Assembly: GCA_020160935.1 (NCBI GenBank)
Contig: JAIUPL010000007.1
Span: 1-64,000, forward strand
Source of the DNA: Bacteroidota bacterium
GTDB lineage: Bacteria > Bacteroidota > Bacteroidia > Chitinophagales > Saprospiraceae
Length of the DNA: 64,000 nucleotides
Direction of reading: 5' to 3'
Shown here: positions 1,907-54,993 of the stretch, piece by piece
Position numbering within the stretch: the stretch's first letter is position 1
Layout of the letters: each line of letters starts with the position of its first letter
Made by a program: the position numbers and the translations under genes
The notes under the pieces: generated by a model
What the model saw: only the letters and a program-made list of their open reading frames with translations
Told to the model about the DNA's origin: nothing
Databases searched by the model: none

Positions 1907-3127
1907 ATGCGCAAAATCGTCACCAACCTCACCACCTGGGTGTTGCTCGCCATTGTAGCGGGTATTCTGCTGGGGCATTTTGCGCCCGAAACGGCTGTTC
2001 GAATGGAGCCGCTCGGCAAATACTTCATCAACGTTGTCAAGGTATTTATCAACCCGCTCATTTTCCTGACCATCACCCTGGGCATTTCTGGCATGGGCGA
2101 CCTGCGCAAAGTGGGCACCGTAGGTGGTAAAGCATTGATTTACTTTGAAATAGTGACCACACTGGCCTTGCTCATCGGCATTGTGGTGGCGCATTTTATA
2201 CAGCCCGGATACGGCGTACAGGCCCAAACGGCGGGCGTCGACATCAGTAAATACACCAAAAGCGCTGCCAATTTTACCTGGTGGAATTTCCTGCGCGAAA
2301 ACCTGACCTTGCAGGTACTGGTTTGTTCCATTTTCCTGGGGATCGGCCTCAATCGTTATTCCGGCAAAGCAAATATCATTCGCCTGCTGGCGCGTGTGTC
2401 GAAATACGTGTTCAAGGCCTTACACGGCGTGATGTTGCTGGCGCCCATCGGTGCTTTCGGCGGTATGGCGTTTACCATCGGAAAATACGGCGTGCAAACC
2501 CTGCTGCCGCTCGCCAAACTCATGGTTTCGGTGTACAGCACCATGGCCATTTTCATTTTTGTAGTGCTCATGCTCATTCTCCGGCGCTACAAAGTCAATA
2601 TTTTTCGCTACCTGAATTTTATCAAGGAAGAACTGCTGATTGTGCTCGGCACCTCGTCCAGCGAAGCCGCACTTCCCGCCCTGATGGAAAAACTCGAGCA
2701 AATGGGCTGCCCCAAACCTGTGGTGGGCCTTGTCATTCCGGCCGGCTATTCCTTCAACCTCGATGGTACCACGATTTACCTTTCCATGGCCACGATATTT
2801 CTGGCGCAGGTGTACGGCATCGACCTGAGCCTCGGCCAGGTGCTGACCATTATCGGGGTGCTGATGGTCACGTCCAAAGGCGCGGCGGGCGTCACGGGCA
2901 GCGGGTTTGTGGTGCTGGCATCTACTTTGTCGGCCGTACAGGTCATCCCCATCGAGGGACTGGCCTTGCTGCTCGGTGTCGACCGTTTCATGTCGGAAGC
3001 GCGGGCCATTACCAATTTTATTGGAAATGGAGTGGCGACGATTTTCCTGGCCAATCTGGAAGGCGAATTTGACCGGGATAAAATGGAAGAGGCGTTTTCG
3101 ACGGAGGTGTATGAGTATGAAATGTAA
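1907..3127 (+). CDS. Sodium/proton:dicarboxylate symporter (DAACS family, DctA/GltP-like)
   Basis: The 406-residue membrane protein belongs to the glutamate/C4-dicarboxylate symporter family. It has about eight hydrophobic segments and all core motifs: the serine-rich re-entrant loop GTSSSEAALP, then PAGYSFNLDGTTIY, then TSKGAAGVTGSGF, and VDRFMSEARAITNFIGNGVA for substrate and cation binding. It probably imports succinate, fumarate, malate or acidic amino acids; the exact substrate cannot be read from sequence. ATG 1907 gives the usual short cytoplasmic start MRKIVTNLTTWVLLA. A TTCCTTTG box at 1876-1883 may be its promoter. It converges on rmlA, with a long inverted repeat between them. Confidence 0.9.
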   Translation: MRKIVTNLTTWVLLAIVAGILLGHFAPETAVRMEPLGKYFINVVKVFINPLIFLTITLGISGMGDLRKVGTVGGKALIYFEIVTTLALLIGIVVAHFIQPGYGVQAQTAGVDISKYTKSAANFTWWNFLRENLTLQVLVCSIFLGIGLNRYSGKANIIRLLARVSKYVFKALHGVMLLAPIGAFGGMAFTIGKYGVQTLLPLAKLMVSVYSTMAIFIFVVLMLILRRYKVNIFRYLNFIKEELLIVLGTSSSEAALPALMEKLEQMGCPKPVVGLVIPAGYSFNLDGTTIYLSMATIFLAQVYGIDLSLGQVLTIIGVLMVTSKGAAGVTGSGFVVLASTLSAVQVIPIEGLALLLGVDRFMSEARAITNFIGNGVATIFLANLEGEFDRDKMEEAFSTEVYEYEM

Positions 3128-3279
3128 CACGGAGACACGGATTGCGCGGATAAAAGAGACGGATTTTCACGGATAGCGTGCGTACGAATGAAGCCCTGGT
3201 AATAACGCAAAACTCATTACCACCCATGCTATCCGTGTAAATCCGTCTCTTTTATCCGTGCAATCCGTGTCTCCGGTGT
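3127..3279. repeat. Long inverted repeat between convergent dctA-like gene and rmlA
   Basis: Two arms of about 51 bases (3127-3177 and 3228-3279) are nearly perfect reverse complements, with a 50-base loop. The arms are made of repeats of the word CACGGAT (ACACGGATT, GCGCGGATAA, GACGGATTTT, CACGGATAGC). Each arm abuts or overlaps the stop codon of the neighbouring gene, which fits a two-way terminator. It is one of the word-built hairpins described in the findings. Confidence 0.85.
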
Positions 3280-4142
3280 CACAGGTGTAGCAGGCGCAAC
3301 AAATACTCCCCGTACCCGCTTTTCAGGTACTTGTGCCCCAGGCGTTCCAGTTGTTCGTCGTCGATAAAGCCCATTTCCCAGGCTATTTCCTCGATACAGC
3401 CGATTTTCAGCCCCTGGCGGTCTTCGATGGTTTCGATAAACTGGCTGGCCTGCATCAGGCTTTTGTGGGTGCCCGTATCGAGCCAGGCGTAGCCGCGACC
3501 CATGACGCGCACTTGCAGGCGGCCTTGTGTGAGGTAAATTTTGTTGACGTCGGTAATTTCGTATTCGCCGCGGGCGCTGGGTTTCAGGTTGCGGGCGATG
3601 TCGATAATGCTGTTGTCGTAGAAATAAATACCGGGCACTGCGTAATGGCTTTTCGGCTTGGCGGGTTTTTCCTCGATGCTCAGCGCCTTGAAGTTTTCGT
3701 CGAATTCCACCACACCGTAGCGCTCCGGATCGGCCACCTGATAGGCGAAAATGATGCCGCCTTCGGGCTCGGTGCAGGAACGCAACATTTCGCCCAGCCC
3801 TGCGCCGTAAAAAATATTGTCGCCCAGAATGAGCGACGCCGAATCAGCGCCTACAAACGGCGCACCCAGCACAAACGCCTGGGCCAATCCATTGGGCTCG
3901 TGCTGCTCCACGTAGGAAAAGTTCATGCCCAGTTCGTGGCCGTCGCCAAACAATTGCCGGAATTTCGGCAAATCCTGCGGTGTGGAAATAATGAGTATAT
4001 CTCGAATACCCGCCAGCATCAGCGTCGACAGCGGGTAATAGATCATCGGTTTGTCGTAAACCGGCATCAACTGCTTGCTCACGGCCAAAGTGAGCGGATA
4101 AAGCCGGGTGCCGAGTCCGCCGGCCAGGATAATTCCTTTCAT
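3279..4142 (-). CDS. rmlA: Glucose-1-phosphate thymidylyltransferase
   Basis: The enzyme joins dTTP and glucose-1-phosphate to give dTDP-glucose, the first step towards dTDP-rhamnose and related sugars of surface polysaccharide. The 287 residues match the short RmlA type. The start [18 protein letters not shown] is the nucleotidyltransferase signature; then [28 protein letters not shown] with the metal-binding Asp, and [16 protein letters not shown]. Upstream in-frame codons are ignored because the family starts at MKGIILAGG (4142). No rmlB, rmlC or rmlD is adjacent, so the rest of the pathway must lie elsewhere. Confidence 0.93.
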
Positions 4143-4220
4143 AATCTGGATAGGTTCGGTTTGGAAGCGCAAAAAAAGTGCCCTTTTGCCGGATAGCCTA
4201 TTCTTTTTTGAAAAAAGGGA

Positions 4221-4228
4221 TAATTTTG
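4221..4228 (+). promoter_or_regulatory. Bacteroidota -7 box for the patatin gene
   Basis: TAATTTTG matches TAnnTTTG and lies 19 bases before ATG 4248. A T-rich tract ending in TTTTTTG (4204-4210) is upstream but closer than the usual -33 spacing. Confidence 0.5.
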
Positions 4229-4247
4229 GAGGTAAAACGAACTTCCC

Positions 4248-5708
4248 ATGCCATTGACAACTGAAGACTTTACAAGCGCGGCAGCGCCGGTACTCGAAAA
4301 ACTACGCACCCGATTTGGTAAAAATCTCCCGCAAGTGTCCGACATCCGCGATGCGCAGGGCCACCAATACGTCAACCTCGTGCAGGAGGGCGGGGGTGTG
4401 CTGGGCGTGGCGTTGCTCGGCTACGTGTATGTGCTGGAAGAAATGGGCATCCGCTTTATGAAAATGGCGGGCACCAGCGCCGGGGCGATCAATACCATGC
4501 TGATGACCTGTGTGGGCGACAAACAAGATCCCAAGGCGCTGAAAGTGCTCGAACACGTCAACAAAAAGCCTTTGTTCGATTTTGTCGACGGCAACTCCAC
4601 GGCCCGGGCACTGGTGCGCCGCCTCATTACGTCCAAAAGTTATTTCAGCCGCCTGTTCAAACTCATCGTCGTTTCGTTGATTGCCTTTGTGGTGGCCGTT
4701 CCGGCGCTGGCATTTTCCTTTGGAAAAGGCGCCTACGACTGGCTGCTGTGGCTATCGCTGGCAGTAACGGTGCTGTCGGGTGGATTTTTGCTGTACCTCG
4801 TGGTGTGGATGCTGGTCAATCGGAAAAAATTCTACCGCTCCGAATTCGGCATCAACCCCGGCCGCAATTTTGAAGAATGGATCAGCGGTATCCTGCAACA
4901 ATACGGCATCCGCAACCTCAACGACCTGCGTGCCCACATCGCAAAAGTGCCGGAAGGCGGTTTCCAACTGATGCGGAATGAGGAAAATGCGGACATTTCA
5001 GACCTGAACCAGCCCGTAATGGAAGATTTTCTCAGCATCGTCACTTCCGACCTCACCAATCGTATGAAAGTGGAATTTCCGCGCATGTGGCAACTCTACT
5101 GGCACGATCCGGAGCAGGTGAATCCGGCGTTTTTTGTGCGGGCGTCTATGGCCGTGCCCTTTTTCTTCCGGCCTTTTGTGGTGCGCGACATCGCGCCCGA
5201 TCGGGTGTTGCCGGCCTGGGGCCAGTTTCTGGGCATCGAAGACATGGCGCGTATTCCGGCTACCACCCATTTTGTCGACGGTGGTTTGTTGTCCAATTTC
5301 CCGATCAATGTCTTTTTCAACCCGAAAGTGGCCGTACCGCGCCTGCCGACTTTCGGCATCATGCTGAGCGCCGAAAACACCGCCAGCGTTGAATACAAAA
5401 CCCTTGGCAGTTTCACCGGCGCTATGATCAGCACTTTGCGCGCCCACTATGACAAGGAATTTTTGCTGAAAAATGCCGACTTCAACCGCACCATCGGTCG
5501 CATCGACGTGGGTGGTATCAACTGGCTGAATTTCAATATTTCCGATCCTGAAAAACTGGAACTGTTCCGACGGGGCGCCGAAGCGGCCGCGCGCTTTTTT
5601 ATGGGCCCCGACCCGAAAGCAGGCGAAGAAGGCCTGGAAAGTACGGGCGGCTTCAACTGGGACTACTACAAGGTGCAGCGGGCGGAGATGAAGCGAATGT
5701 TGAGTTAG
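4248..5708 (+). CDS. Patatin-like phospholipase with two membrane segments
   Basis: The 486-residue protein has the patatin catalytic pattern: an oxyanion-hole segment [14 protein letters not shown] (residues about 45-58), the nucleophile elbow GTSAG with Ser77, and the catalytic Asp344 in [11 protein letters not shown]. The family hydrolyses acyl chains from lipids through a Ser-Asp dyad. Between the elbow and the Asp lie two strong hydrophobic stretches (about residues 137-155 and 164-188), so the enzyme is probably anchored in the inner membrane, with the dyad brought together on the cytoplasmic side (inference). No signal peptide is seen. The stop codon lies inside the left arm of the following inverted repeat. 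Confidence 0.85.
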
Positions 5709-5854
5709 TTATTGGTTATCTGTTATTGGTTATTAGGGGTGGTAGGGGGCCATTTGTACAAATGCCTGGCTACACAAAAACAGATGCCAGACATTTGTAC
5801 AGATGGCCCCCTACCACTCCTAATAACTGATAACCAATAACCGATAACTAACTC
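5702..5854. repeat. Word-built inverted repeat, copy 1 of the GGTGGTAGGGGGCCAT family
   Basis: Arms of about 68 bases flank a 15-20 base apex between two convergent genes. The outer arm is made of TTATTGGTTATC-like words; the inner arm is GGTGGTAGGGGGCCAT plus TGTACAAATG. Only a few C/T differences separate one arm from the complement of the other. Both neighbouring stop codons fall within the arms. A second copy with the same inner core is at 23056-23196. Confidence 0.9.
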
Positions 5855-6914
5855 AAAGGACCTTCAGCAGTTCTTCCTCCAGATTCATCCGCGGGTTGAT
5901 AGCCACGATTTTTCCGTCTTTGCCGATGAGGAATGTTTTCGGGATGGCGCGCACGCCGTAGGTAGCGGCCGGAGCGCTGTCCCACCATTTCAGGTCGCTC
6001 ACGTGGTTGTCCCAGATGAGGCCGTCCTGTTTGATGGCCTGAATCCATTTCTCTTTGCCGTCAGGGCGGTCGAGCGATACGCTGAACACGTCGAAGCCTT
6101 TGCTTTTGTATTTGTTGTAGGTTTCCACCACGTGGGGGTTGGCTTTGCGGCAAGGGCCGCACCAGGAAGCCCAGAAGTCGAGCAGTACCACCTTGCCTTT
6201 CAGTGAAGACAGCGAATGCACCTTGCCATCGGGGCCGGGCAGGCTGATATCGGGGGCGGGCATACCGACCTGAATGGTTTCGTCGGCGTATTGTTGGGAA
6301 GATTGTTTTTCGATGTCCGACACCATTTTGCTGAAATCAGTGGCATATTTAGAGCCGGGCATGGCAGTGTTCAGGTTAGCGGCAGCGGTGCGGAAATCAT
6401 CCATAAAAGCGCCGGCATTTTGTCCGAGTACCTGTGTGGTCAGGAAGGCTTTCATAAGCGGGTTACAGCCTTTGCCGACGACCATGCGGGCTTCATCCAC
6501 GCTTTTTACCTGATTTTTCAGCAGCCCGCCGATGATGTCGGCATAGCAGGTGAAAGTAGGCGAACCCGTAACCTGCACATCAAGGCGATCGATGGTTTTC
6601 AAGTCCCCTTTCACTTCTACCGTATTTTCGGTACCATCGAGAATGAAAAACATCTTTTTGGCGCCGATGCTCAAGCGGTACAGCCCTGCCTCAAAGGGCT
6701 TTTCCAGTTTGATTTCGAAATTGCCCGAAGCGTCGCAGGTCGAGCGACTCAGTGCCACGCTGGAGCGGTCGAAATGAGCCTGTTCGAGCAGTACCTGCAG
6801 GTTGGCAGCGCCCTCGATAGCGCCTTTCAACGCATGGCCGCCTTGTCCGTTGCAGGCATGAAGAATGGCCAGAGCGGGCAGGAGCAGCAGAATGAATGAT
6901 GATATTTTTTTCAT
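5853..6914 (-). CDS. Thioredoxin-domain lipoprotein (DUF4369 plus TlpA-like)
   Basis: The 353-residue protein starts MKKISSFILLLLPALAILHAC, a lipoprotein signal with lipidated Cys21; ATG 6914 is chosen because it gives this signal. Residues about 25-130 fit the DUF4369 N-terminal domain common in Bacteroidota. The C-terminal third is a TlpA/AhpC-TSA thioredoxin fold with WASWCGPCRK (Cys252, Cys255) and the cis-Pro loop AIPKTFLIG. Such proteins are periplasmic thiol-disulfide reductases anchored to a membrane; the partner is not evident here. Confidence 0.88.
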   Translation of the reverse strand: MKKISSFILLLLPALAILHACNGQGGHALKGAIEGAANLQVLLEQAHFDRSSVALSRSTCDASGNFEIKLEKPFEAGLYRLSIGAKKMFFILDGTENTVEVKGDLKTIDRLDVQVTGSPTFTCYADIIGGLLKNQVKSVDEARMVVGKGCNPLMKAFLTTQVLGQNAGAFMDDFRTAAANLNTAMPGSKYATDFSKMVSDIEKQSSQQYADETIQVGMPAPDISLPGPDGKVHSLSSLKGKVVLLDFWASWCGPCRKANPHVVETYNKYKSKGFDVFSVSLDRPDGKEKWIQAIKQDGLIWDNHVSDLKWWDSAPAATYGVRAIPKTFLIGKDGKIVAINPRMNLEEELLKVL

Positions 6915-11520: not shown

Positions 11521-11645
11521 AAGTGAGAGGGTGAGAGGGTGAGAGAGTGAGAATACGTAGAGTAGACCGCTCCGTGCTTGGCATTTTTAGCGCGGAGCGG
11601 GCTACTCTACGTATTCTCACTCTCTCACCCTCTCACTCTCTCACT
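11521..11645. repeat. Word-built inverted repeat with GTGAGAG arms and CGTAGAGTAGACC inner part
   Basis: Left arm 11521-11574 is made of GTGAGAGG/GTGAGAGA words followed by ATACGTAGAGTAGACCGCTCCG. Right arm 11591-11645 is its complement with small differences. The apex is 16 bases. It separates the convergent protease and response-regulator genes and is a likely two-way terminator. Confidence 0.88.
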
Positions 11646-13815: not shown

Positions 13816-14000
13816 TTTTAGAGAGTGAGAGAAGTGAGAGAGTGAGAGAGTGAGAGGCGTAGAGTGGACCGCGTTGTTCATGGGCGGGTAAAATGAGTGG
13901 ATGTGCTCAACTCCTCAACTCCTCAACTTTCAACCCTCATCAACCCCATCAACCTTATCAACTCCCATCCACCCCACAAAGATACACGCCTCCATGCCTC
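13816..14000. repeat. One-armed word tracts in a divergent promoter gap
   Basis: 13816-13856 is a run of GAGAGTGAGAG words, followed by CGTAGAGTGGACC at 13858-13870. From about 13905 to 13975 a different run of CTCAACTCCT, TCAACC and CATCAAC words appears. Neither run has a facing arm, unlike most such tracts in the window. The gap separates the kinase from the GLPGLI gene, which are divergent. Confidence 0.75.
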
Positions 14001-14852: not shown

Positions 14853-14917
14853 TGGGAGGCCTCACCACAGGCGCCCTTTCCAAGGGAGAAGGGCTGTTAC
14901 TGCCGGCAAAAACTACT

Positions 14918-15089
14918 TTTTTTATCAACCACGAAGGACACGAGGGACACAAAGCGTAGAGTGGACCATACCTACACATGGATGATTGACTTGCGTTCTC
15001 ATTCTGTCTTCCTGTAAATAAATCTTACACGTAAATTGGTGTACGCTACACTTTGTGTCCCTTGTGTCCTTCGTGGTTTATAAAAAAAT
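14918..15089. repeat. Inverted repeat with GAAGGACACGAGGGACACAAAG arms
   Basis: Left arm 14918-14967 and right arm 15041-15089 are near complements: AACCACGAAGGACAC, RAGGGACACAAAG, then a CGTAGAGTGGACC-like word (14955-14967; complement TGTAGCGTAC at 15041-15050). The 73-base loop shows no gene. It lies between two genes on the same strand, so it could end the GLPGLI transcript. Confidence 0.85.
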
Positions 15090-15159: not shown

Positions 15160-17958
15160 ATGAAACAACTCCTCCTTTACATTTTTCTCTTTCTCTCCCT
15201 CAGCGCTTTTGCTCAAAACAAAAGCATCCTGGTAGAAGGCGCCGTGGCCGATTCGAGCGGGATCGGCCTGCCTTCCGCCAGTGTGGCGCTGCTGCAACCC
15301 AAAGATTCGGTGCTGCACGCCTTCGGTTTGTCGGACAAAGACGGCCGATTTACCATCAAACGCGTGGCGCCCGGCGAATACCTGCTGCAAATTACCTACC
15401 TCGGCTATCGGACGCATTACCAGTCCGTGTCGGTGCCGGCCGACCAGCCCAAAATATCGCTGCCACGCATCCTCATGGCGCCGTCCAGCACCCTGCTCGA
15501 CGCCGTGGATATTACGGCGCAGCAGATGCCGCTGCGCATCCGGAAAGATACCATTGAGTACAATGCAGGCGCATTTCAGACGCAACCCGGCTCCGTTGTG
15601 GAAGACCTGCTGCGCAAACTCCCGGGCGTGGAAGTGCAGCAGGACGGCAGTATCAAGGCGCAAGGTGAAACGGTGCAGAACGTACTGGTGGAAGGCAAGG
15701 AGTTTTTTGGAAATGACCCGAAAATCGCCACCAAAAACCTGCCTGCCGACGCGGTGGACAAAGTGCAGGTGTTCGACAAAAAATCGGAGATGGCCGAATT
15801 TACAGGCATCGAGGACGGCCGCGACCAGAAAACGATCAACCTGAAACTCAAGGAAGATAAAAAGCAGGGCTACTTCGGAAATGTCAGCGCCGGATACGGC
15901 ACAGAAGAGCGTTATCAGGGCAAGTTCAGTGTCAACCGTTTCAGCAAAAAAATGCAACTCTCGGCTATCGGCGCTGCAAATAATATCAACGAACAGGCAT
16001 TTTCCTTTGAAGACTATATCAATGTGATGGGCGGGCTGTCCAACTTCATGACGGGCGGCGGTAGCGGCCGGGTTCGCATTGAAATCAATGAAGATTCGGG
16101 TATTCCCTTGCCCGGAAATGTCAATCGCGGATTCACCGATAACCAGGCCGTGGGTCTGAACCTCAACTACGAGTTTTCACCCAAAACGGAACTCAACGGC
16201 CACTACTTTTTCAATCGCATCCAGAACGACCTCGACCGGCTCGCTACGCGCCAGAACCTGCTGGATATGGGCAATTTTGGTTCCAGCGACCACGAATTGC
16301 GCAACAGCGAAAACATGAACCACCGCCTGAACCTGACCTTGCGCCATAAAATCGACTCGTTTCAGAATATCATCGCTCGCACCAACCTGTCGTTCAACGA
16401 TGCGGGGCTGCTCAGCGACCTCAACGCCCGCACCTACGACGCCTTGAATATTTTGCAAAACAACAGCACCCGCCTGTTCGACTCCGATGGCAACAACCTG
16501 CGTGGCGATGCAGCCTTCACCTACCGCCGCCGATTCGGGCGAAAAGGACGTGCGCTGGTGGCCGATCTGACTTACCGTACCGGCAACGATACCCGTCTGG
16601 CACGCCTCTCGGCTGCCAATACATTTTACACTGGTGGACAGGATAGCACCGGATACGTTCGTCAGCGTCAGCAGTATGCAAATGAGACGGAAAACTATGG
16701 CGCATCCCTTTCATACACCGAGCCGCTGGGGAAACAGCAGTACCTCGAATTGCGCGCCGCCCGGCAGCAGTACACCAACAATACCGACAAGGACTTTTAC
16801 GACCTGGTGGAAGTGCCCACGCCGGGAGAGGTGTTCAACCCATTGCTTAGCAATCAGTTTCGCAGAGGTTATCGCTACGACCGGGCGGGCCTGAACTACA
16901 TGCGCAACCGGAAAAAATACAACCTGACAGCCGGCGCTGCCCTGCAAAACTCGGTACTGGACGGTACCCTGGCGGGCTCTGAGGAAACGTTGAGCAGGCA
17001 TTTTACCCGCGTCATGCCTTCGCTGTTTTACAATTACGAACCGCAGATGGGCCGAAATTTTGCCGTAGAATACACCACTGACCTGCGCGAGCCCTCGCTC
17101 GAACAGTTGCAGCCCGTGGTCGACAACAGCGACCCGCTCAACATTTACATCGGCAATCCCGACCTGCAACCGGAGTATGCACACAACCTGGAATTGCGCA
17201 TGATGCGTTTCGACCAGTTTAGCATGACCAGTTTTTTTGCCACCCTGGCGGCCAACTATGTCACCAATCGGATCACCAATGCCTCCACGGTCGACGAATT
17301 GTTCCGCCGAACCATCCGCCCGGTCAACGTAGCGCGGGATATTACCCTGAATGGCTATTTCAATTTTGGAAAACCTATCCGACCCATTCGCTCCAACCTC
17401 AACCTGGGTCTGAGCAGCACCTACAACCGCGGTATTCTGTTTGTAAACGATGTGGAAAACAACACCGACCGCTGGCAGCATACCTTCAACCTGGAACTCG
17501 ACAACCGCAAAAAAGAACGCCTCGATGTGAGCGCCGGCGCCCGCTTTCTGCTCAATAGCACGCGTTATTCGGTGAGCGAAGCGCTCAATCAGCAGTTTCT
17601 GAACCAGCAATACCATGCTGATGTAACGGTTTTTCCCGGGAAAGGAAAAAAATGGGCCATCGGAACGGGCCTGGACTACTCCATTTACTCCGCCGAGGCC
17701 TTCGGGCAGGAAACGTCCATTCCGCTCTGGCGCGCCAGCATCGTACACTATATGCTAAAAAACAAACGTGGACAACTCAAACTCTCGGCCGCCGATCTGC
17801 TTAAACGGAACCTGGGCATCTCGCGCAGCAGCCAGTTCAACTACCTGGAGGAAGAGCGCATCGTATCGCTGAGCCGCTACTTCATGCTGAGTTTTGCCTA
17901 CTCGTTGTCGGGATTTGGTAATGAGCGGGGCGGGTTTGAGATGAGGGTCATAAGATAG
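15160..17958 (+). CDS. Outer-membrane beta-barrel receptor-like protein (CarboxypepD_reg, plug, OMP_b-brl_3 type)
   Basis: The 932-residue protein starts with a signal peptide MKQLLLYIFLFLSLSAFAQ (ATG 15160). Residues about 22-110 form a carboxypeptidase-regulatory-like beta domain (VADSSGIGLPSASVALLQ...GRFTIKRVAPGEYLLQITYLGY). Residues about 120-230 resemble the plug of TonB-dependent receptors (DTIEYNAGAFQTQPGSVVEDLLRKLPGVEVQQDGSIKAQGE). The rest is a long beta-barrel of alternating hydrophobic strands. The family is related to TonB receptors but usually lacks a clear TonB box. With the GLPGLI protein it may form an envelope unit of unknown substrate. Confidence 0.88.
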   Translation: MKQLLLYIFLFLSLSAFAQNKSILVEGAVADSSGIGLPSASVALLQPKDSVLHAFGLSDKDGRFTIKRVAPGEYLLQITYLGYRTHYQSVSVPADQPKISLPRILMAPSSTLLDAVDITAQQMPLRIRKDTIEYNAGAFQTQPGSVVEDLLRKLPGVEVQQDGSIKAQGETVQNVLVEGKEFFGNDPKIATKNLPADAVDKVQVFDKKSEMAEFTGIEDGRDQKTINLKLKEDKKQGYFGNVSAGYGTEERYQGKFSVNRFSKKMQLSAIGAANNINEQAFSFEDYINVMGGLSNFMTGGGSGRVRIEINEDSGIPLPGNVNRGFTDNQAVGLNLNYEFSPKTELNGHYFFNRIQNDLDRLATRQNLLDMGNFGSSDHELRNSENMNHRLNLTLRHKIDSFQNIIARTNLSFNDAGLLSDLNARTYDALNILQNNSTRLFDSDGNNLRGDAAFTYRRRFGRKGRALVADLTYRTGNDTRLARLSAANTFYTGGQDSTGYVRQRQQYANETENYGASLSYTEPLGKQQYLELRAARQQYTNNTDKDFYDLVEVPTPGEVFNPLLSNQFRRGYRYDRAGLNYMRNRKKYNLTAGAALQNSVLDGTLAGSEETLSRHFTRVMPSLFYNYEPQMGRNFAVEYTTDLREPSLEQLQPVVDNSDPLNIYIGNPDLQPEYAHNLELRMMRFDQFSMTSFFATLAANYVTNRITNASTVDELFRRTIRPVNVARDITLNGYFNFGKPIRPIRSNLNLGLSSTYNRGILFVNDVENNTDRWQHTFNLELDNRKKERLDVSAGARFLLNSTRYSVSEALNQQFLNQQYHADVTVFPGKGKKWAIGTGLDYSIYSAEAFGQETSIPLWRASIVHYMLKNKRGQLKLSAADLLKRNLGISRSSQFNYLEEERIVSLSRYFMLSFAYSLSGFGNERGGFEMRVIR

Positions 17959-18062
17959 AGGTGAGAGTGTGAGAGATGTGAGAGGGTGAGAGGTGAGAGG
18001 TGAGAGAGTGAGAGGGTGAAAAAGCGAGAGATGTGAGAAAATGAGAGGGGCGGGAGTGAGAG
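17959..18062. repeat. One-armed tract of GTGAGAG words
   Basis: Directly after the barrel stop, about 100 bases consist of GTGAGAG, GATGTGAGAGG and GGTGAGAGAG words without a facing arm. No gene is visible from 17959 to 18299. Confidence 0.75.
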
Positions 18063-18091
18063 AGTGGGATGAAGGTTATGTGTAAATGATA

Positions 18092-18769: not shown

Positions 18770-18873
18770 GTGAGTGGTGAGTAGTGAGTGGTGAATAGTC
18801 AGTAGTGAATAGTCAGTAGTGAGTAGTGAATGGGGAGAAACTCACCACTCACTACTCACTACTGACTATCCAC
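18770..18873. repeat. GTGAGTAGTGAGT word tract with facing arm
   Basis: About 65 bases of GTGAGTGGTGAGTAGT, GAATAGTCAGTAGT words face a complement at 18841-18873 (CTCACCACTCACTACTCAC...). The inner 33-base arms (18805-18837 and 18841-18873) pair with few mismatches around a three-base apex. It follows directly on the terminator at 18730. Confidence 0.8.
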
Positions 18874-18955
18874 CACATAAAACGTTAAATCTGAAACCAT
18901 TAAAAATATGTAATCGTTTTGTTCCGTATTCTACCCGCAAACAAAACCTTCCTCA

Positions 18956-20422: not shown

Positions 20423-20574
20423 GTAGAGTAATTTCCCGCAGATGGCGCAGATTTACCCGCAGATTTACGCAGATCGTAGAGTACACTTATTTCTTCCAAA
20501 CGATAGTAAGGTGTACTCTACGATCTGCGTAAATCTGCGGGTAAATCTGCGCCATCTGCGGGAAATTACTCTAC
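20423..20574. repeat. Perfect 64-bp inverted repeat built of CGCAGATTTA words
   Basis: Arms 20423-20486 and 20511-20574 are exact reverse complements over 64 bases with a 24-base loop. Words are CCGCAGATGGCGCAGA, TTTACCCGCAGA, TTTACGCAGAT, with CGTAGAGTAAT and CGTAGAGTACAC at the two ends of the arm. It lies between convergent genes (membrane protein and helicase). Confidence 0.92.
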
Positions 20575-23055: not shown

Positions 23056-23196
23056 GTTATCCGTTATCGGTTATTAGTTATTAGGGGTGGTAGGGGGCCA
23101 TCTGTACAACTATTTGGCTACCCCGAAAGGGACGTCAGACAGTTGTATAGATGGCCCCCTACCACCCCTAATAACTAATAACCGATAACGGATAAC
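23056..23196. repeat. Word-built inverted repeat, copy 2 of the GGTGGTAGGGGGCCAT family
   Basis: The outer arm is made of GTTATCCGTTATCGGTTATT words; the inner arm is GGTGGTAGGGGGCCAT and TGTACAACT. The right arm is the complement with few changes. Relative to copy 1 (5702-5854) the apex half differs on both sides in a paired way. It lies between the divergent helicase and rpsJ genes, so here it is not at a gene end. Confidence 0.9.
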
Positions 23197-25126: not shown

Positions 25127-25206
25127 GGTTATTAGTTATTAGTTATTAAGTTATTGGTAATCAACCACTCAGTAACAAATAACGAATAACAAATAACCAA
25201 TAACAA
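25127..25206. repeat. Inverted TTATTAGTTATT/AATAACNAATAAC words between rplD and rplW
   Basis: TTATTAGTTATTAGTTATT AAGTTATTGG words face AACAAATAACGAATAAC and AAATAACCAATAAC words, so a loose hairpin can form inside the operon spacer. Confidence 0.75.
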
Positions 25207-25213
25207 AACTGTT

Positions 25214-25518: not shown

Positions 25519-25616
25519 AGTTAATAGTTATTAAGTTATTAGTTATAAGGGTATTGCCCAGGCTCTCCAGCCAAGAGCAATCTCCACCAATAACCAATAA
25601 CCAATAACCAATAACA
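25519..25616. repeat. Inverted AGTTATTAAGTTATT/CCAATAACCAATAAC words between rplW and rplB
   Basis: The left side is TTAATAGTTATTAAGTTATTAGTTAT; the right side is four tandem CCAATAA units just before the rplB start. The middle (25548-25585) is unrelated sequence. Confidence 0.75.
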
Positions 25617-25624
25617 TAAAAACA

Positions 25625-28767: not shown

Positions 28768-28839
28768 TAGTTTAGAGTTGAGAAGTTTGACGTTGAGATA
28801 CTCAACCCTCAGCACCTCAACCCATCAACTGATAAACTA
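28768..28839. repeat. Inverted GTTGAGA/CTCAACC words between rplP and rpmC
   Basis: TAGTTTAGAGTTGAGAAG and GACGTTGAG (28768-28797) face CTCAACCCTCAGCACCTCAA and CAACTGATAAACTA (28801-28839); the outer TAGTTTA/TAAACTA ends also pair. Confidence 0.8.
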
Positions 28840-29412: not shown

Positions 29413-29513
29413 TAGTTATGAATGATGAATGTGAAGGAAGAATAAGGAGATGCAATGCTCACTACTCACCACTCACTACTCACCAGACATAACTCATAAC
29501 TCATAACTAATAA
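29413..29513. repeat. Mixed word tract between rpsQ and rplN
   Basis: TTAGTTATGAATGATGAATG on the left faces ATAACTCATAACTCATAACTAA on the right. Between them are CTCACTACTCACCACTCACTACTCACC words, the family also seen at 18841. Confidence 0.75.
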
Positions 29514-31115: not shown

Positions 31116-31195
31116 AAGTGTTCGGGTGTTTTGGTGTTTAGTGTCTTTCCGTGTCATTCACGAAAACACGAAAACACTAAAAAACGAAAACACTT
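31116..31195. repeat. Inverted GTGTTTTGGTGTTT/AAAACACGAAAACAC words between rpsN and rpsH
   Basis: AAGTGTTCGGGTGTTTTGGT and TTAGTGTCTTTCCGTGT face ACGAAAACACGAAAACACTA and AAAACGAAAACACTT. The apex is CATTC. The arms pair with some mismatches. Confidence 0.8.
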
Positions 31196-31238
31196 AAAAC
31201 ACAACTCTTTTCAGATTACAATCAATCGAGAATATACA

Positions 31239-33328: not shown

Positions 33329-33371
33329 ATCAGCACAACTGATAACAGATAACCGATAACTGATAACAAGA
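33329..33371 (+). repeat. GATAACAGATAACCGATAAC words between rpsE and rpmD
   Basis: A 40-base tract of GATAAC words. The same family forms the outer arms of the hairpins at 5702 and 23056, but here only one arm is present. Confidence 0.65.
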
Positions 33372-39513: not shown

Positions 39514-39597
39514 GAGTTATGAGTTATAAGTTATGAGTTATGAGTGCACACGTAGCGTACTCACCATTCATAACTCATAACTCATAACTCATAACTC
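39514..39597. repeat. Inverted GAGTTATGAGTTAT/ATAACTCATAACTC words between rpoA and rplQ
   Basis: Left arm 39514-39546 and right arm 39560-39597 pair closely. The apex holds CACGTAGCGTACTC, a form of the CGTAGAGTGGACC word shared with other hairpins. Confidence 0.85.
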
Positions 39598-39672
39598 TAA
39601 CAAAGTGTGGTAACCGCATGAGCGCCCAACTGCTGCTCCGGTGCCGCCACCTACAAAAAAGGTACCCGTACC

Positions 39673-45071: not shown

Positions 45072-45119
45072 CAGGGCGAATCCACCAAAATATTCTCACT
45101 TAAAAATCACATATAGATT

Positions 45120-46145: not shown

Positions 46146-46187
46146 CCGGCTTTGGACAACACTTCCGAAGCATAAAACCAGTACATC

Positions 46188-49429: not shown

Positions 49430-50100
49430 CCCACACCCTCCCCCTCGCCACCATCACATTCCCCGAAATACGCCTGCCACAGCGTGCAGCAGCGCAGTTG
49501 CGCGGGTATTTCGGTACCATTTTCAGGCAGCACAGTCCATTGTTGCACAACCATTACGACGATGGGCGCACGCGGTATGCTTACCCGCTGGTGCAGTACA
49601 AAGTCATAGCAGGAATGCCCATGCTGGTAGGATTGATGGACGGGGCCAAATTGCTCACCGATCTGTTTTTTCAAATGAAAACCTTGCAGATCAGCGACCG
49701 GGAGTACCCGGTTATGGAGCGGGATATTGCTTTTAAAAATGCTACTGTTGGAGTAGGAGAGGGGCTGTACGACTATCAATTCCGAACCCTCTGGATGCCA
49801 CTGAACCAGCAAAACTATCCGGAATACTTGCAAAAAGATGCAGAAGCACGTCGCGCCATGCTGGGACGCATCCTGACAGGCAATATCCTAAGTTTCTTCA
49901 AAGGAATCGGCCTGTTTCTGCCGGAAGGCGTGCGCATACTGAGCAGTGTGCGACCACAGGAAGAACGCCTCACAGGATTTAAAGACCAACTGATGACCGG
50001 TATCGCCGGAGGCTTTACTACCAATGCTTTGTTGCCCGATTTCATCGGCCTGGGCAAAAGCGTGGCAAGGGGCTATGGTGCCCTCGACAAAAGTGCATAG
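49426..50100 (+). CDS. cas6: CRISPR pre-crRNA endonuclease Cas6 (Cas6b-type)
   Basis: The 224-residue protein has the Bacteroidota Cas6b pattern: LRGYFGTIFRQHSPLLHNHYDDGRTRYAYPLVQYKV, with His36, His41 and His43 as candidate active-site residues, and a glycine-rich C-terminal segment LPDFIGLGKSVARGYGAL. It cuts the repeat RNA to leave an 8-base 5' handle. It lies between cas3 and cas1, not at the operon head. Confidence 0.85.
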   Translation: MTHTLPLATITFPEIRLPQRAAAQLRGYFGTIFRQHSPLLHNHYDDGRTRYAYPLVQYKVIAGMPMLVGLMDGAKLLTDLFFQMKTLQISDREYPVMERDIAFKNATVGVGEGLYDYQFRTLWMPLNQQNYPEYLQKDAEARRAMLGRILTGNILSFFKGIGLFLPEGVRILSSVRPQEERLTGFKDQLMTGIAGGFTTNALLPDFIGLGKSVARGYGALDKSA

Positions 50101-50127
50101 CCATACATCATTACCAAAACAAACAGC

Positions 50128-51162: not shown

Positions 51163-51192
51163 TCTACTCTAACCCTGAAAAAATGTAATTAA

Positions 51193-51483
51193 ATGATTGT
51201 CTGGGTTTTATATGATATTCAAAATGATCGCTCCCGAGACCGCGTAGCAAAAACCTGTAAAAAGGCGGGGTTGTATCGAGTGCAGTACAGTTGTTTTTTG
51301 GGCACCCTGGATGAGCACGAACTCGATACGCTCGAACTGCAAATAACCCCTCAAATTAATCCTGACATAGACAAGGTTTATATTTTTCCCATGAGCCGTT
51401 CGGAATTGAAAAATACCACCCTTTTAGGCCAGGCTTTCGATAAAAAAATGGTGACCGACGCTGTACGAGCCCTTTTCTTTTGA
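51193..51483 (+). CDS. cas2: CRISPR adaptation protein Cas2
   Basis: The 96-residue ferredoxin-fold protein starts MIVWVLYDIQNDRSRDRVAK with the conserved Asp8 and has GLYRVQYSCFLGTL. It is the dimeric bridge of the Cas1-Cas2 complex. Confidence 0.95.
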   Translation: MIVWVLYDIQNDRSRDRVAKTCKKAGLYRVQYSCFLGTLDEHELDTLELQITPQINPDIDKVYIFPMSRSELKNTTLLGQAFDKKMVTDAVRALFF

Positions 51484-51502
51484 GTCGACTTTATTTTCTG
51501 AT

Positions 51503-52078
51503 ATGTTCAGTATTACGCCCTCACATATTATCGAGTACCTGTATTGTCCGCGCTTCACATATTTCGAATACGTGTTGCGCATTCCTCAGTATGAAGAAAA
51601 AAATTTCAAAGTGATGCAGGGCCGCTCCATGCACGAGTTGAAATCACTCCAAAACAAGGAATACCTGCGGCGGCGGATCGGCGTTGTGGAAAAACGATTA
51701 AATGTTTACCTTGCTAACGGAATCCTGCGCGGCGAGGTAGACGAAGTACTTCTGTTGGCCGATGGAACAGCCGCAGCCCTGGATTATAAATTTGCCAAAT
51801 GGGAAGGGCGGCTTTATGAAACCTATCGAACCCAACTAGCCTGTTATGCGTGGCTGATAGAGTCCAATTTCAATATTGTGGTAAACCGCGGTTATCTGGT
51901 ATATGTGAGAAGTAAAAATCATGTGGAAGAGGTACCTCTCAGCCCAGCCGATATGGCTGCTGTGCGTACCGCTGCTCGGGAAATTCAGTTGATACTTGAA
52001 AAAAATAATTATCCCCAAGGCACCAAAGTTCGAAAGCGATGCGATCACTGTACATATCGAAATATTTGTACTCAGTAA
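51503..52078 (+). CDS. cas4: CRISPR adaptation nuclease Cas4
   Basis: The 191-residue PD-(D/E)XK nuclease trims prespacers and selects PAM. Active-site residues are His44, Asp80 (GEVDEVLL), Asp94 and Lys96 (LDYKFAK). The iron-sulfur Cys are Cys15, Cys180, Cys183 and Cys189 (RCDHCTYRNIC). It lies after cas2, next to the leader, although in most type I-B loci cas4 precedes cas1. Confidence 0.94.
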   Translation: MFSITPSHIIEYLYCPRFTYFEYVLRIPQYEEKNFKVMQGRSMHELKSLQNKEYLRRRIGVVEKRLNVYLANGILRGEVDEVLLLADGTAAALDYKFAKWEGRLYETYRTQLACYAWLIESNFNIVVNRGYLVYVRSKNHVEEVPLSPADMAAVRTAAREIQLILEKNNYPQGTKVRKRCDHCTYRNICTQ

Positions 52079-52274
52079 AAAATTTTCCGGGTGGCCATTT
52101 ATCGGGAAGGGTGTATTTTTCCGGTATAAATGCTTCGATACCAATGATTTGTGTTTCCGGAAAAAATATGTGCCAACCCCAAAATATGTTCTTTGATAGA
52201 CCGTATTCGGGTGAAAAGTACCCAAAAAACAGGTTCTTTATGCTTGAAAATCAAAATGTTATGATAAAAGACGA
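52079..52274 (+). promoter_or_regulatory. CRISPR leader
   Basis: The 196 bases between the cas4 stop and the first repeat are AT-rich (with CAAAATGTTATGATAAAAGACGA directly before the repeat) and have no gene. The position next to the perfect repeats, while the degenerate repeat is at the other end, marks it as the leader. No exact TAnnTTTG box is visible. Confidence 0.75.
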
Positions 52275-53858
52275 GTTGGCGGGCAAATTCCAGAAGAAGA
52301 AGGATTGAAACGTGTCAAATATGGATTGGCGTTCGTGGCAGCACGAAAAGTTGGCGGGCAAATTCCAGAAGAAGAAGGATTGAAACGGCTCTTCAATTAC
52401 ACCACCGTTCGGCAGGTCTACGTTGGCGGGCAAATTCCAGAAGAAGAAGGATTGAAACCCTATTACCTGAACATTCCTGACTCCAAAATTTTGCGTTGGC
52501 GGGCAAATTCCAGAAGAAGAAGGATTGAAACCATCCGTTTACCAGGCGGACGGCCCCTTTGGGCATGACGTTGGCGGGCAAATTCCAGAAGAAGAAGGAT
52601 TGAAACTTCACCTGTCAGTTTTTTGGATAGTTCGGATTCGTAAGTTGGCGGGCAAATTCCAGAAGAAGAAGGATTGAAACAAAAGAGACAGTATTAAAAG
52701 AAATTGTGCCGCCTGTGTTGGCGGGCAAATTCCAGAAGAAGAAGGATTGAAACACCAGGAATCATACCCATAATGAGCATAACCAAAAAGGTTGGCGGGC
52801 AAATTCCAGAAGAAGAAGGATTGAAACAATCCAATAGGCATTCGCCAAAGTTGTCTGGTATTCGTTGGCGGGCAAATTCCAGAAGAAGAAGGATTGAAAC
52901 GAACAGATCATCGCAGAGCATTCAGGGCCGCCGTACAAGTTGGCGGGCAAATTCCAGAAGAAGAAGGATTGAAACCAACCAAATAAAGTAGGTCGGATTG
53001 CATGTACTTAAAGTTGGCGGGCAAATTCCAGAAGAAGAAGGATTGAAACATCTTAATGATATTGTCCTGGTACTGCTGTTCCGCTTCGTTGGCGGGCAAA
53101 TTCCAGAAGAAGAAGGATTGAAACCTCCACAACAGACAGCAAACTGTCGTACAAAGACCCGTTGGCGGGCAAATTCCAGAAGAAGAAGGATTGAAACATT
53201 CTTTCCTTACACACGATACAATCATTCCCGTCAGTTGGCGGGCAAATTCCAGAAGAAGAAGGATTGAAACCCACTCTTCTAAAAAAGATCACCTGCTAAT
53301 TTGACAGTTGGCGGGCAAATTCCAGAAGAAGAAGGATTGAAACAGACATTAGTAGGTATAACAAATAGAGACGTTTGCGAGTTGGCGGGCAAATTCCAGA
53401 AGAAGAAGGATTGAAACTATAGTTCTGAAAGGTGTGAATTTGCAGTACACCACAAGTTGGCGGGCAAATTCCAGAAGAAGAAGGATTGAAACAACATCCT
53501 GATAATGTATTGCAGGTAGACCCTGAAAGGTTGGCGGGCAAATTCCAGAAGAAGAAGGATTGAAACCCTTCCGTCGAATCTTCGCCCGCTGGTGAGCGAT
53601 TTGTTGGCGGGCAAATTCCAGAAGAAGAAGGATTGAAACCGCCTGACTTCATTATCGACATCCCCCCCCCCATGAGTTGGCGGGCAAATTCCAGAAGAAG
53701 AAGGATTGAAACATAATGGGGGTTTTGCACGCGAATAAAGGCGACGGAGTTGGCGGGCAAATTCCAGAAGAAGAAGGATTGAAACATGAACGAATCGCAG
53801 AGGGTTACCAACTCGCTGGATGTTGGCGGGCAAATTCCAGAATAACAAGGATTCCCCC
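52275..53858 (+). CRISPR. Type I-B CRISPR array, 22 repeats and 21 spacers
   Basis: The 37-base repeat begins GTTGGCGGGCAAATTCC and ends GAAGGATTGAAAC. Repeats start at 52275, 52350, 52422, 52495, 52570, 52644, 52717, 52791, 52864, 52939, 53013, 53088, 53161, 53234, 53307, 53381, 53456, 53530, 53603, 53676, 53749 and 53822. The first 21 look identical; the last is altered after base 21. Spacers are 35-38 bases and all different. ATTGAAAC at the repeat end fits the type I-B 5' handle, so transcription runs on the plus strand away from cas4. One spacer (53640-53675) holds a run of ten C. Confidence 0.98.
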
Positions 53859-54268
53859 CATCCGCATGCCCCAGATTCGAACACCCGCAGAATCACCCCC
53901 TCCCACACCCCTTCCACGCTCTCCCACACCCCTTCCATCCTGTCCGCTTACCCGGTTTTGCTTGGCTCCACACCGATCACGCGCTCTGATACCCCGTAGC
54001 CGCGTTCCGGCACTCCGCTGACACCCTTTCACACTCCGTCAACCCGTTACCAAACGCCGTCGTTGAGGTCTCCCAACCTAAATGCCGGCCTTTCCAACCC
54101 CAACGTTGGTCTCCTGAACGTCGGCATTTGTCCAAAATACCCGGCTATTCGGGGTTAAATACCTAAAATTTACTCATCAAAACCCCAGTACACCTGTTGA
54201 AAAACCCTATACTGCTTTTGCCAACCGAAAGGTTGCTCCATGTACCACTTCAAAACCCATATGCTCCT
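53859..54268. other. Pyrimidine-rich gap after the CRISPR array
   Basis: About 300 bases are rich in C and T on the plus strand, with a 16-base direct repeat CTCCCACACCCCTTCC (53900-53915 and 53921-53936) and many ACACCC/CTCCG words. AAATGCCG (54080-54087) and CGGCATTT (54122-54129) with AACGTTGG inside form a hairpin. No gene is credible. The following gene might start upstream at 54197. Confidence 0.55.
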
Positions 54269-54754
54269 ATGCCATTTCATGATTTATCCCGAGACCACCT
54301 GCTCCCCGAAGAAGAAACCGCTATCGACGCAGCCATCATGGCCCTTGAAAAAGCGCTGGCCAACAAAAAACGCAACCTTACCCCCCAGGAACGCCAGCGA
54401 TTCGGGAGTGTAAATGAATCTAACAAGTTGTTTGTCAACAAAGTATTCGATTTTAGCCAGACCCAGCAGGAAATGTGTAGCCCCGATGTCGACTGGTCGG
54501 AATTTGCTGCCGACTACCGCGATCGCATGTTTTTGGAAACGCGCCTGTCTCGCTTGCGTGCCTTGCTCGAAATCATGGAAAACAACAAGATTCTGCACGA
54601 CTTCGACAATTTCCAGAATGCATTGATGGATTACGCCTACACCCAATACAAAAAAGAGACGGATGCGCCCGGTTTTGTAAACAAGTACGAGGCCTTGCGG
54701 CAGTTTTTTTCGCGCAGCGGCGGCAGCAGGAAAGCGAATGAAAAGGGTGGATGA
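54269..54754 (+). CDS. Helical protein of unknown function
   Basis: The 161-residue protein (from MPFHDLSRDHLLPEEETAIDAAIMALEKALANKK) is highly charged and predicted helical throughout, without signal peptide or membrane segment. Notable segments: LTPQERQRFGSVNESNKLFVNKVFDFS and EFAADYRDRMFLETRLSRLRALLEIMENNKI. I recall short proteins starting with a similar ...DLSRPL...EEE pattern in Saprospiria, but cannot name a family. A longer reading from 54197 lacks support. Confidence 0.6.
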   Translation: MPFHDLSRDHLLPEEETAIDAAIMALEKALANKKRNLTPQERQRFGSVNESNKLFVNKVFDFSQTQQEMCSPDVDWSEFAADYRDRMFLETRLSRLRALLEIMENNKILHDFDNFQNALMDYAYTQYKKETDAPGFVNKYEALRQFFSRSGGSRKANEKGG

Positions 54755-54807
54755 AGCGCTTCCGGGGGGGGCTTAAAAACACAAGCCATCCGGAATTTTG
54801 GGCAAAA

Positions 54808-54993
54808 ACATGAGTCATCCCTCCGATTTTTTCGCACCATAATGACGCCAAACGCCCCTTGTTCTCCTGACGGGAACCGTCCACGCTACGAGGGAAAATG
54901 CGTGGTTACGCGCCGTAGAGTGGACAGTTCCCGTCAGGAAAACAAGGGGCGTTTGGCGTCATTATGGTGCGAAAAATTCGGGATGACTCATGT
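54808..54993. repeat. 186-base inverted repeat with apex word CGTAGAGTGGAC
   Basis: Arms of about 80 bases: ACATGAGTCATCC, TTTTTCGCACCATAATGACG, CCAAACGCCCCTTGTT and CCTGACGGGAAC on the left, their complement on the right, with only a few small differences. The inner ends carry GTCCACGCTACG (54879-54890) and CGTAGAGTGGAC (54914-54925). Unlike other hairpins the arms are not made of tandem words. The apex is about 24 bases. Confidence 0.9.

What the first reader, a model, noticed from the sequence alone, without database searches (positions are those of the whole stretch)
3127..54993. Genome-wide style of intergenic hairpins made of short varied words
At least eleven gaps hold inverted repeats or one-armed tracts built from one short word repeated with small changes: CACGGAT (3127), GGTTATTGG (5702, 23056, 25127, 25519, 33329), GTGAGAG (11521, 13816, 17959), GAAGGACACRAGG (14918), GTGAGTAGT (18770, 29440), CGCAGATTTA (20423), GTTGAGA (28768), GTGTTTTGG (31116), GTTATGAGTTAT (39514). 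Each gap has its own word. Arms of 20-80 bp often fit exactly against the stop codons. This is not a single transposable repeat; it looks like the same structural plan filled with different words. Two-way termination is a simple role, but copies also occur in divergent gaps and inside the ribosomal operon.
Basis: partly seen in the sequence, partly recalled or inferred. Interest (0 to 1): 0.75.

Follow-up and report, generated by a model that had tools for sequence, protein, structure and literature searches.

The report
Swappable hairpin repeats at gene ends
In this uncultured Bacteroidota bacterium many gaps after genes hold long, nearly perfect hairpins, and a sister species usually has a hairpin in the same gap but often spelled with different DNA on both arms, so the fold at a gene end can outlast its sequence.

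Summary
Of 17 gaps folded (the finding's 16, plus 54823), 13 fold far better than shuffles (z < -3, none of 100 as low); 4 one-armed tracts do not. In 556 kb, 116 gap hairpins with arms >=20 nt were found: 37 of 52 convergent, 62 of 180 tandem, 12 of 66 divergent gaps carry one; in the 464 kb controlled, shuffled gaps gave 0-1 per contig and round, coding sequence 0-1 per contig. "Each gap has its own word" fails genome-wide: 99 of 116 hairpins cluster into 14 interspersed families, some nested. New part: in sister genome G008, 21 of 24 self-complementary gaps are self-complementary too, against 1 of 43 others. Yet 2 of those 21 gaps have no detectable sequence similarity and 6 only short local matches, and cross-species arm pairing is below both self-pairings in 15 of 21. 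U-tracts are not enriched (9 of 104), so ordinary intrinsic termination is unsupported. Best reading: REP-like non-autonomous palindromic repeats just after stop codons, overwritten by copies of one another, arms kept matched by template switching, perhaps acting as RNA 3'-end barriers. Mechanism and role are inferred. New variant of a known kind.

The parts
3130..3275 (.). Hairpin, CACGGAT words, convergent gap; G008 has the same family with a longer left array and a different inner part (by eye)
   Evidence: z -17.4
5700..5856 (.). Hairpin, outer GTTATTGG words, inner shell AGGGGTGGTA, own core; G008 has the outer word and shell but a different core of about 190 bp
11522..11645 (.). Hairpin, GTGAGAG words around a CGTAGAGTAGACC core; G008 has AGTCCTGAGTCC words on both arms
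13816..13870 (.). One-armed GTGAGAG tract with CGTAGAGTGGACC; no hairpin (gap z -0.2)
14917..15088 (.). Hairpin, CCACGAAGGACAC words with CGTAG inner part; G008 has an unrelated self-complementary sequence in this gap
17957..18066 (.). One-armed GTGAGAG tract; also one-armed in G008 by eye
18770..18876 (.). Hairpin, GTGAGTAGT words; G008 has a GGATTGAAAGGATTAG hairpin instead
20423..20574 (.). Hairpin, CGCAGATTTA words plus CGTAGAGT shells, 64-nt arms 100% complementary; G008 has the same family with other unit order, arms again matching (92%)
23056..23196 (.). Hairpin in a divergent gap, GTTATTGG words, AGGGGTGGTA shell; 84% similar over 141 bp to the 5709 hairpin; G008 has a GGTTGATGAGG hairpin plus a lone GTTATC-type right arm
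25127..25207 (+). Hairpin in the ribosomal operon (L4-L23 gap), GTTATTA words
   Evidence: z -5.5; relatives
25519..25620 (+). Hairpin in the L23-L2 gap, GTTATTA words
   Evidence: z -6.9
28768..28830 (+). Hairpin in the L16-L29 gap, GTTGAGA words
   Evidence: z -5.0
29415..29513 (+). One-armed CTCACTACTCACCA / CATAACT tract before L14; no significant fold here; in L009-L011 the gap holds GTTATGA-type words on both sides
31116..31210 (+). Hairpin in the S14-S8 gap, GTGTTTTGG words
   Evidence: z -4.7
33329..33368 (+). One-armed AACTGATAAC tract just before the L30 start (the published TAACTGA word)
39514..39597 (+). Hairpin in the RpoA-L17 gap, GAGTTAT words; GATGAAT in L009-L012, TTGGTGA in L013, GGTTTCAA in L014, GGCAGCA in L029
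40532..40638 (.). Inverted repeat made of two ACCTATAAGGTTT-type palindromes
54823..54981 (.). Hairpin with 68-nt arms (94%) and CGTAGAGTGGAC in the inner part; the folded gap 54755-54963 cuts its right arm short
   Evidence: z -11.1

Best explanation
The hairpins are members of about 14 families of interspersed, non-autonomous palindromic repeats (REP-like in position, not in sequence). Typically an outer tandem array of mostly 7-nt words and an inner family core are mirrored on the other arm, and the hairpin sits just after a stop codon. Shown: many copies, preference for gene 3' ends, and, between sister species, different families or cores on both arms in the same gap. Inferred: (1) copies move between gaps by overwriting or nesting in existing hairpins (ectopic conversion or insertion at the hairpin tip); (2) word arrays expand by slippage and the second arm is recopied from the first by replication template switching, so arms stay matched while sequence drifts; (3) selection tolerates or keeps a strong RNA hairpin at gene 3' ends as a barrier to 3' exonucleases after Rho-type termination (recalled from other bacteria), or between operon genes, because any word that pairs will serve.
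For: Interspersed: 99 of 116 hairpins in 14 families by single linkage on shared 8-mers; over 40 of 84 match rows in the own genome belong to one GTGAGAG array of G008; matches at 74-92% for the nine gaps searched, most in other gaps. Position: conv 37/52, tandem 62/180, div 12/66; tandem hairpins nearer the upstream stop 53 of 65, p 2.8e-7. Same gaps in G008: 21 of 24 against 1 of 43, Fisher p 3e-13; 3 of 670 shuffled gaps reach the score; tandem gaps alone 11 of 14 against 0 of 34, p 1.6e-8; with the stricter arm test 14 of 18 against 5 of 54, p 8e-8. Arms differ together: cross-species pairing below the weaker self-pairing in 15 of 21 gaps, Wilcoxon p 0.007; joining left and right halves from different species lowers stability, e.g. 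-0.286 to -0.149, -0.371 to -0.203, -0.415 to -0.218 kcal/mol/nt. Core exchange: G008 gaps 5709 and 18639 carry the same insert, 90% identical over 192 columns, where the window has two other hairpins. Nesting: GTTGAG arrays inside GTTATC hairpins at C51:6950, C51:192506, C24:211378. Arms resemble their partner more than family mates in most of the ten families compared (0.93 v 0.32, 0.95 v 0.71). Template switching as maker and keeper of hairpins: abstract of PMC8794818.
Against: No mobilising enzyme was found: the two Y1 transposases detected are flanked by other palindromes; other transposase families were not searched. No target-site duplication or clean empty site was seen in the five of nine presence/absence gaps that I aligned. 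In 6 of 21 gaps cross-species pairing was not lower than the weaker self-pairing. Only 2 of the 21 gaps lack any similarity (scores 8 and 9.5, null median 8.5-9); most keep some word or shell. Families 7 and 8 show little partner-over-mate excess (0.95 v 0.94, 0.91 v 0.84), and hairpins were chosen for matched arms, which inflates the partner score. G015 and G028, same genus, have few such hairpins (11 and 10 of arms >=20 nt in 240 and 220 kb), so they are not essential. T-rich tracts are commoner before the hairpin (26 of 104) than after it (9 of 104), unexplained. The RNA role rests on position and structure only. Words at one gap in distant genomes are no more alike than words of different gaps in one genome (0.035 v 0.039, p 0.24).
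Confidence: 0.55

Rival explanations
1. True transposition: each family is a MITE-like element moved by an unidentified transposase that targets intergenic hairpin tips, as some insertion sequences target REP palindromes.
For: Same insert of about 190 bp in two G008 gaps; nested hairpins; word tracts in the loop of the conserved L17 leader in L024, L026 and L038, by eye; REP palindromes are known IS targets (abstract of PMC1525189).
Against: No target-site duplication or clean empty site in five of nine presence/absence gaps aligned; only two Y1 transposases found, tied to other palindromes; other transposase families were not surveyed.
Confidence: 0.25
2. Purely mutational: slippage plus template switching make such hairpins wherever coding constraint is absent; there is no function and no movement between loci.
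For: Arm matching and tandem 7-nt units are what slippage and template switching give (PMC8794818 abstract; heptamer slippage discussed in the introduction of PMC4679880); one-armed and half-converted gaps exist.
Against: The same core and loop recur at several loci, which local mutation would not do; strong bias to gene 3' ends rather than all gaps.
Confidence: 0.12
3. Bidirectional intrinsic transcription terminators whose sequence is free to drift as long as the stem forms.
For: Convergent gaps richest (37 of 52), often with one hairpin close to both stop codons.
Against: U-rich tract after the hairpin in 9 of 104 readings, against 13.6% of random gap 12-mers; hairpins inside the ribosomal operon and in 12 of 66 divergent gaps. 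Factor-assisted or U-tract-independent termination is not excluded.
Confidence: 0.15
4. Translation-level elements: the right arms just before start codons act as leaders or protein-binding sites, as proposed for TAACTGA repeats in Beggiatoaceae.
For: One-armed AACTGATAAC tract directly before L30 and the published pattern (PMC4679880, sections read).
Against: Tandem-gap hairpins lie nearer the upstream stop in 53 of 65; most words here are not TAACTGA; the census counts two-armed structures.
Confidence: 0.08

Closest known systems
Repetitive extragenic palindromes (REP) and their dimers (PMC3733652, abstract and section 15 read)
   Same: Interspersed intergenic palindromes in many copies, mostly in convergent and unidirectional gaps, close to 3' ends (under 20 bp for most convergent REPs in two species shown there); several types can share a genome
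   Different: Here arms have a median of 46.5 nt and reach 130 nt, built of tandem words, with exchangeable word and core; the two Y1 transposases found are linked to other palindromes; family 7 (GTAGAGACAAGGC) alone looks REP-sized
TAACTGA heptamer direct repeats of Beggiatoaceae, Cyanobacteria and some Bacteroidetes (PMC4679880; abstract, sections 3, 10, 16, 24 and search passages read)
   Same: The GTTATCA array is its reverse complement; intergenic, also in ribosomal operons, 7-nt unit, no known spreading mechanism
   Different: In the genome studied most closely there, mostly direct arrays before start codons, one inverted case and no predicted RNA structure; here mirrored arrays in long hairpins mostly after stop codons, many different words, differing on both arms between sister species
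Template-switch-made and maintained RNA hairpins (PMC8794818, abstract and start of introduction read)
   Same: Perfect stems created in one event and paired changes on both sides
   Different: Described there for RNA genes; here whole arm words differ and the same core recurs at many loci
Coding palindromes of Nematomorpha mitochondria (PMC6649704, abstract read)
   Same: Numerous perfect inverted repeats of up to 284 bp in one genome
   Different: Inside genes; here in gaps, with repeated words and families
Insertion sequences that target REP palindromes (PMC1525189, abstract read)
   Same: Palindromes as preferred sites for new DNA, comparable to nesting here
   Different: The nested pieces seen here are themselves palindromic repeats; none seen carries a gene

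Membership tests
REP (repetitive extragenic palindromes) | High-copy intergenic palindromes near gene 3' ends | tested here: met
   99 of 116 in families; 66 of 143 distances <=10 nt
REP (repetitive extragenic palindromes) | Unit of 20-40 bp with GTAG or CGTC tag at one end | tested here: not met
   arm length quartiles 33, 46.5, 57 nt; words differ; only family 7 is of that size and begins GTAG
REP (repetitive extragenic palindromes) | Association with a RAYT (Y1) transposase flanked by the repeat | tested here: not met
   2 Y1 genes found in the genome, flanked by GCCCTGAAAGGGC-type and GTTGGCGAGGACGCCAAC palindromes; word-family hairpins lie further off
Intrinsic transcription terminator | GC-rich hairpin followed by a U-tract | tested here: not met
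   9 of 104 readings with >=5 T in 8 nt, random 13.6%
MITE | Terminal inverted repeats with target-site duplication | tested here: inconclusive
   five of nine presence/absence gaps aligned, none gives a clean empty site
MITE | Parent autonomous transposon | not tested
   only PF01797 was searched
Heptamer (TAACTGA / long simple sequence) repeats | Tandem 7-nt units in gaps | tested here: met
   many arrays of period 7; GTTATYRG arrays in 24 of 395 Bacteroidota genomes
Heptamer (TAACTGA) repeats | Located directly before start codons as direct arrays | tested here: not met
   53 of 65 tandem-gap hairpins nearer the stop; the tract at 33329 is an exception
Template-switch hairpins | Second arm copied from the first, leaving clusters of paired changes | tested here: inconclusive
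   fit it, but no single event was caught between strains

The most novel reading that the evidence does not exclude
Gene ends in this lineage are structural 'slots': a hairpin is kept at the slot while its sequence is overwritten, on both arms at once, by other palindromic cassettes from the same genome. The overwriting starts at the hairpin tip through an unknown process (tip cleavage plus repair from another hairpin, or a tip-targeting enzyme), so a structure is inherited without its sequence.
Probability: 0.3. Interest if true: 0.8.

Novelty: new variant of a known kind. Interest (0 to 1): 0.6.

Why it matters
If right, it is a natural case in which DNA hairpins persist at fixed sites while their sequence is replaced, which makes the question of how perfect stems arise and are maintained directly testable by comparing strains. 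It also shows that covariation between species can come from cassette replacement rather than base-by-base compensation, a caution for RNA structure discovery. These repeats may also break assemblies: contig C22 of this genome ends inside such an array.

Tried and rejected
Single interspersed element: rejected, 14 families and 17 singletons. RAYT/REP system as the driver: not supported for the word families. Intrinsic terminators: not supported. Loss of SbcCD as the cause of long palindromes: SbcD is over the family cut-off in only 5 of 42 genus genomes (one of the five, G018, only by summing pieces), and the four with a strong match (G004, G013, G029, G039) had no arm >=35 nt in the 40, 20, 80 and 19 kb sampled. 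But G015 and G028 are below the cut-off and also poor (0 and 3 arms >=35 nt in 240 and 220 kb), as are several genomes sampled at only 10-20 kb. The apparent absence of an Mre11-like gene in G000 is uninformative, because contig C22 ends just where it is expected. So this was dropped. Close pair G015/G028 for watching fresh events: too few hairpins. Word dialect per genome: not supported. A class of stop codons in all frames was considered for the 7-nt unit but not tested.

Literature: the searches listed no title or abstract beginning that describes hairpin words differing on both arms at the same gap; apart from the five papers named in this report I saw listings, not the papers, and long result lists were capped. 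One search (palindromic + intergenic + Saprospir + repeat) found no paper. Subscription papers are not held, so this is a weak negative.

On the report check I added one control; it showed that only 2 of the 8 low-similarity gaps are at the level of unrelated sequence, and the wording was softened.
Full report
What was checked. The window is bases 1-64000 of contig C24 of a 5.84-Mb, 51-contig genome. The closest named SecY relatives are metagenome-assembled Saprospiraceae and other Bacteroidota, 97% identical at best (records very near the window's own may be left out there), and 42 genomes of the genus, this one included, were searched. The listed words are at the listed places. Of 17 gaps folded, 13 have z < -3 with none of 100 shuffles as low; 4 are one-armed and do not pass.

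Genome census. With a simple codon-based gene caller of my own (no published annotation), C24:1-144000 and C51:1-320000 hold 27 and 65 gap inverted repeats with arms >=20 nt at >=85%. Shuffled gaps gave 0 in all five rounds and 1,1,0,0,0; called genes of 300 nt or more gave 0 and 1. With all of C24 added (555,740 bases, under a tenth of the genome) there are 116 hairpins: 37 of 52 convergent, 62 of 180 tandem and 12 of 66 divergent gaps of 60 nt or more carry one. Median arm length is 46.5 nt, the longest 130. In tandem gaps 53 of 65 lie nearer the upstream stop than the downstream start (median 23 against 108 nt), and 66 of 143 hairpin-to-stop distances are 10 nt or less.

What the hairpins are made of. 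Single-linkage clustering of arms by shared 8-mers gives 14 families of 2 to 27 members (99 hairpins) and 17 singletons. The largest cluster chains sub-families (GTGAGAG, AGTCCTGAGTCC, CGCAGATT) that differ in outer word but share a core of the form CGTAGAGTRNACC; apical TTGGC occurs in several families, by eye. Some hairpins are nested: a GTTGAG array lies inside a GTTATC hairpin at C51:6950 (130-nt arms), C51:192506 and C24:211378. Words recur: 77 overlapping exact matches of GTGAGTAGTGAGTAGTGAG in the genome, none for the reversed control. A GAGTTAT array (up to 2 mismatches) gives 307 overlapping matches here, 235 in G008, 281 in G024, 197 in G041, 25-81 in five others and 0-11 in the remaining genus genomes. 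So the statement that each gap has its own word fails, while the statement that it is not one repeat holds.

Same gaps in a sister species. G008 has an identical RpoA protein and aligned stretches of 82-95% DNA identity. Of 148 gaps of C24, 72 could be mapped; 67 of at least 40 nt were scored (5 shorter ones dropped). Self-complementarity (score >=18; reached by 3 of 670 shuffled gaps) was present in both species in 21, only here in 3, only in G008 in 1, and in neither in 42 (Fisher p 3e-13). Tandem gaps alone give 11 of 14 against 0 of 34; the stricter arm test gives 14 in both, 4 only here, 5 only in G008, 49 in neither. Of the 21, gaps 11519 and 14853 have forward similarity at the level of unrelated sequence (8 and 9.5; null median 8.5-9) and six more only short local matches (15.5-29: 85791, 3128, 6915, 25127, 112839, 5709). 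Cross-species complementarity was below the weaker self value in 15 of 21 (Wilcoxon p 0.007); in 6 it was not (22921, 31111, 39509, 71401, 84549, 101295). Read by eye, without knowing which state is older: gap 11519 has GTGAGAG here and AGTCCTGAGTCC in G008, on both arms; 18639 GTGAGTAGT against GGATTGAAAGGATTAG; 85791 ATTTCCGATTTCC against CGGATAAAGCGG; 5709 shares its outer GTTAT word and AGGGGTGGTA shell but not its core; 22921 has a GTTATC hairpin here, a GGTTGATGAGG hairpin and a lone GTTATC-type right arm in G008. The cores of G008 gaps 5709 and 18639 are 90% identical over 192 columns, in the same orientation, loop included, which points to copying between loci.

The ribosomal operon across more distant relatives. 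Of 329 gap sequences (window plus up to 30 loci, 55-260 nt) 108 have z < -3 with 20 shuffles each. Left half of one species joined to right half of another was on average less stable than native in the 18 gaps with at least two strong members; for S3-L16 the two were practically equal (-0.236 and -0.234), and gaps with conserved leaders changed little. In the RpoA-L17 gap the word is GAGTTAT here, GATGAAT in L009-L012, TTGGTGA in L013, GGTTTCAA in L014, AGTGATA in L017 and GGCAGCA in L029, while some relatives have no hairpin there. Beyond the close group, words at the same gap are no more alike than words of different gaps in one genome (0.035 against 0.039, p 0.24; 61 strong gap sequences).

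Mechanism. Shown: interspersed copies, gene-end position, different sequence on both arms at shared gaps. Inferred: copying between loci, by conversion or insertion at the tip, and arm matching by template switching. Arms resemble their partner more than family mates in most of the ten families compared (0.93 against 0.32; 0.95 against 0.71), but hardly in family 7 (0.95 against 0.94), and the selection of hairpins for matched arms inflates the partner score. Gap 92818 looks like an intermediate: GATGAAT words on both sides with a GAGTTAT-type core on the right only, by eye. No target-site duplication was seen in five of the nine presence/absence gaps. The two Y1 transposases found are flanked by other palindromes.

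Function. U-rich tracts follow only 9 of 104 gene-end readings (random gap 12-mers 13.6%), and T-rich tracts are commoner before the hairpin (26 of 104), so intrinsic termination in its usual form is not supported. A structure-dependent RNA 3'-end barrier fits the position, the indifference to sequence and the presence within operons, but no transcript data were available, and G015 and G028 of the same genus have few such hairpins.

Known relatives. REP elements share the gene-end distribution (PMC3733652, section 15) but differ in size, tag and transposase link. TAACTGA heptamers (PMC4679880) are the same word as GTTATCA arrays but are described mostly as direct arrays before start codons. 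GTTATYRG arrays occur in 24 of 395 Bacteroidota genomes sampled, with 155 overlapping matches here (5 for the reversed control) and at most 20 in any other. Hence: new variant of a known kind.

Noticed in passing
window 39598-39672 and the same gap in L009-L038: A conserved structured leader just before rplQ (L17), GUGGUAACYGU..GAGCG..GCYCCGGUGCYRCCACC; in 12 sequences 5 of 14 predicted pairs have changes on both sides with the pair kept. No Rfam match at E <= 1 covered it. In L024, L026 and L038 word tracts sit in its apical loop, by eye.
   Followed up: partly
window 52274-52458 and 52642-53567: CRISPR-like arrays with the repeat GTTGGCGGGCAAATTCCAGAAGAAGAAGGATTGAAAC, downstream of ORFs at 43104-52078 that were not examined.
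   Followed up: no
L195 (G000:C42:24793-25246) and L196 (G000:C29:2332-2577): Two Y1 transposases, each near its own palindrome (GCCCTGAAAGGGC.., GTTGGCGAGGACGCCAAC); the first palindrome type also occurs in the window near 18090-18140.
   Followed up: partly
G000:C22:31065 and L225:9903-13432: This genome's contig ends in a GTGAGAG array just where G008 has an Mre11-like and Rad50-like gene pair; SbcD is over the family cut-off in 5 of 42 genus genomes.
   Followed up: partly
gaps A77562 and A78237 of the joined G015:C3 stretch and their G028 counterparts: One-armed arrays before start codons differ greatly in length between genomes about 96-97% identical (114 v 287 nt; 248 v 130 nt), so one arm can expand alone.
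   Followed up: no
window 55005-55522: A direct duplication of about 277 bp.
   Followed up: no
C51:156417, 159071, 264868, 265388; C24:232150: GTAGAGACAAGGC..GCCTTGTCTC palindromes, REP-sized and beginning GTAG, possibly a true REP family; similar repeats in cyanobacteria are recalled, not tested.
   Followed up: no
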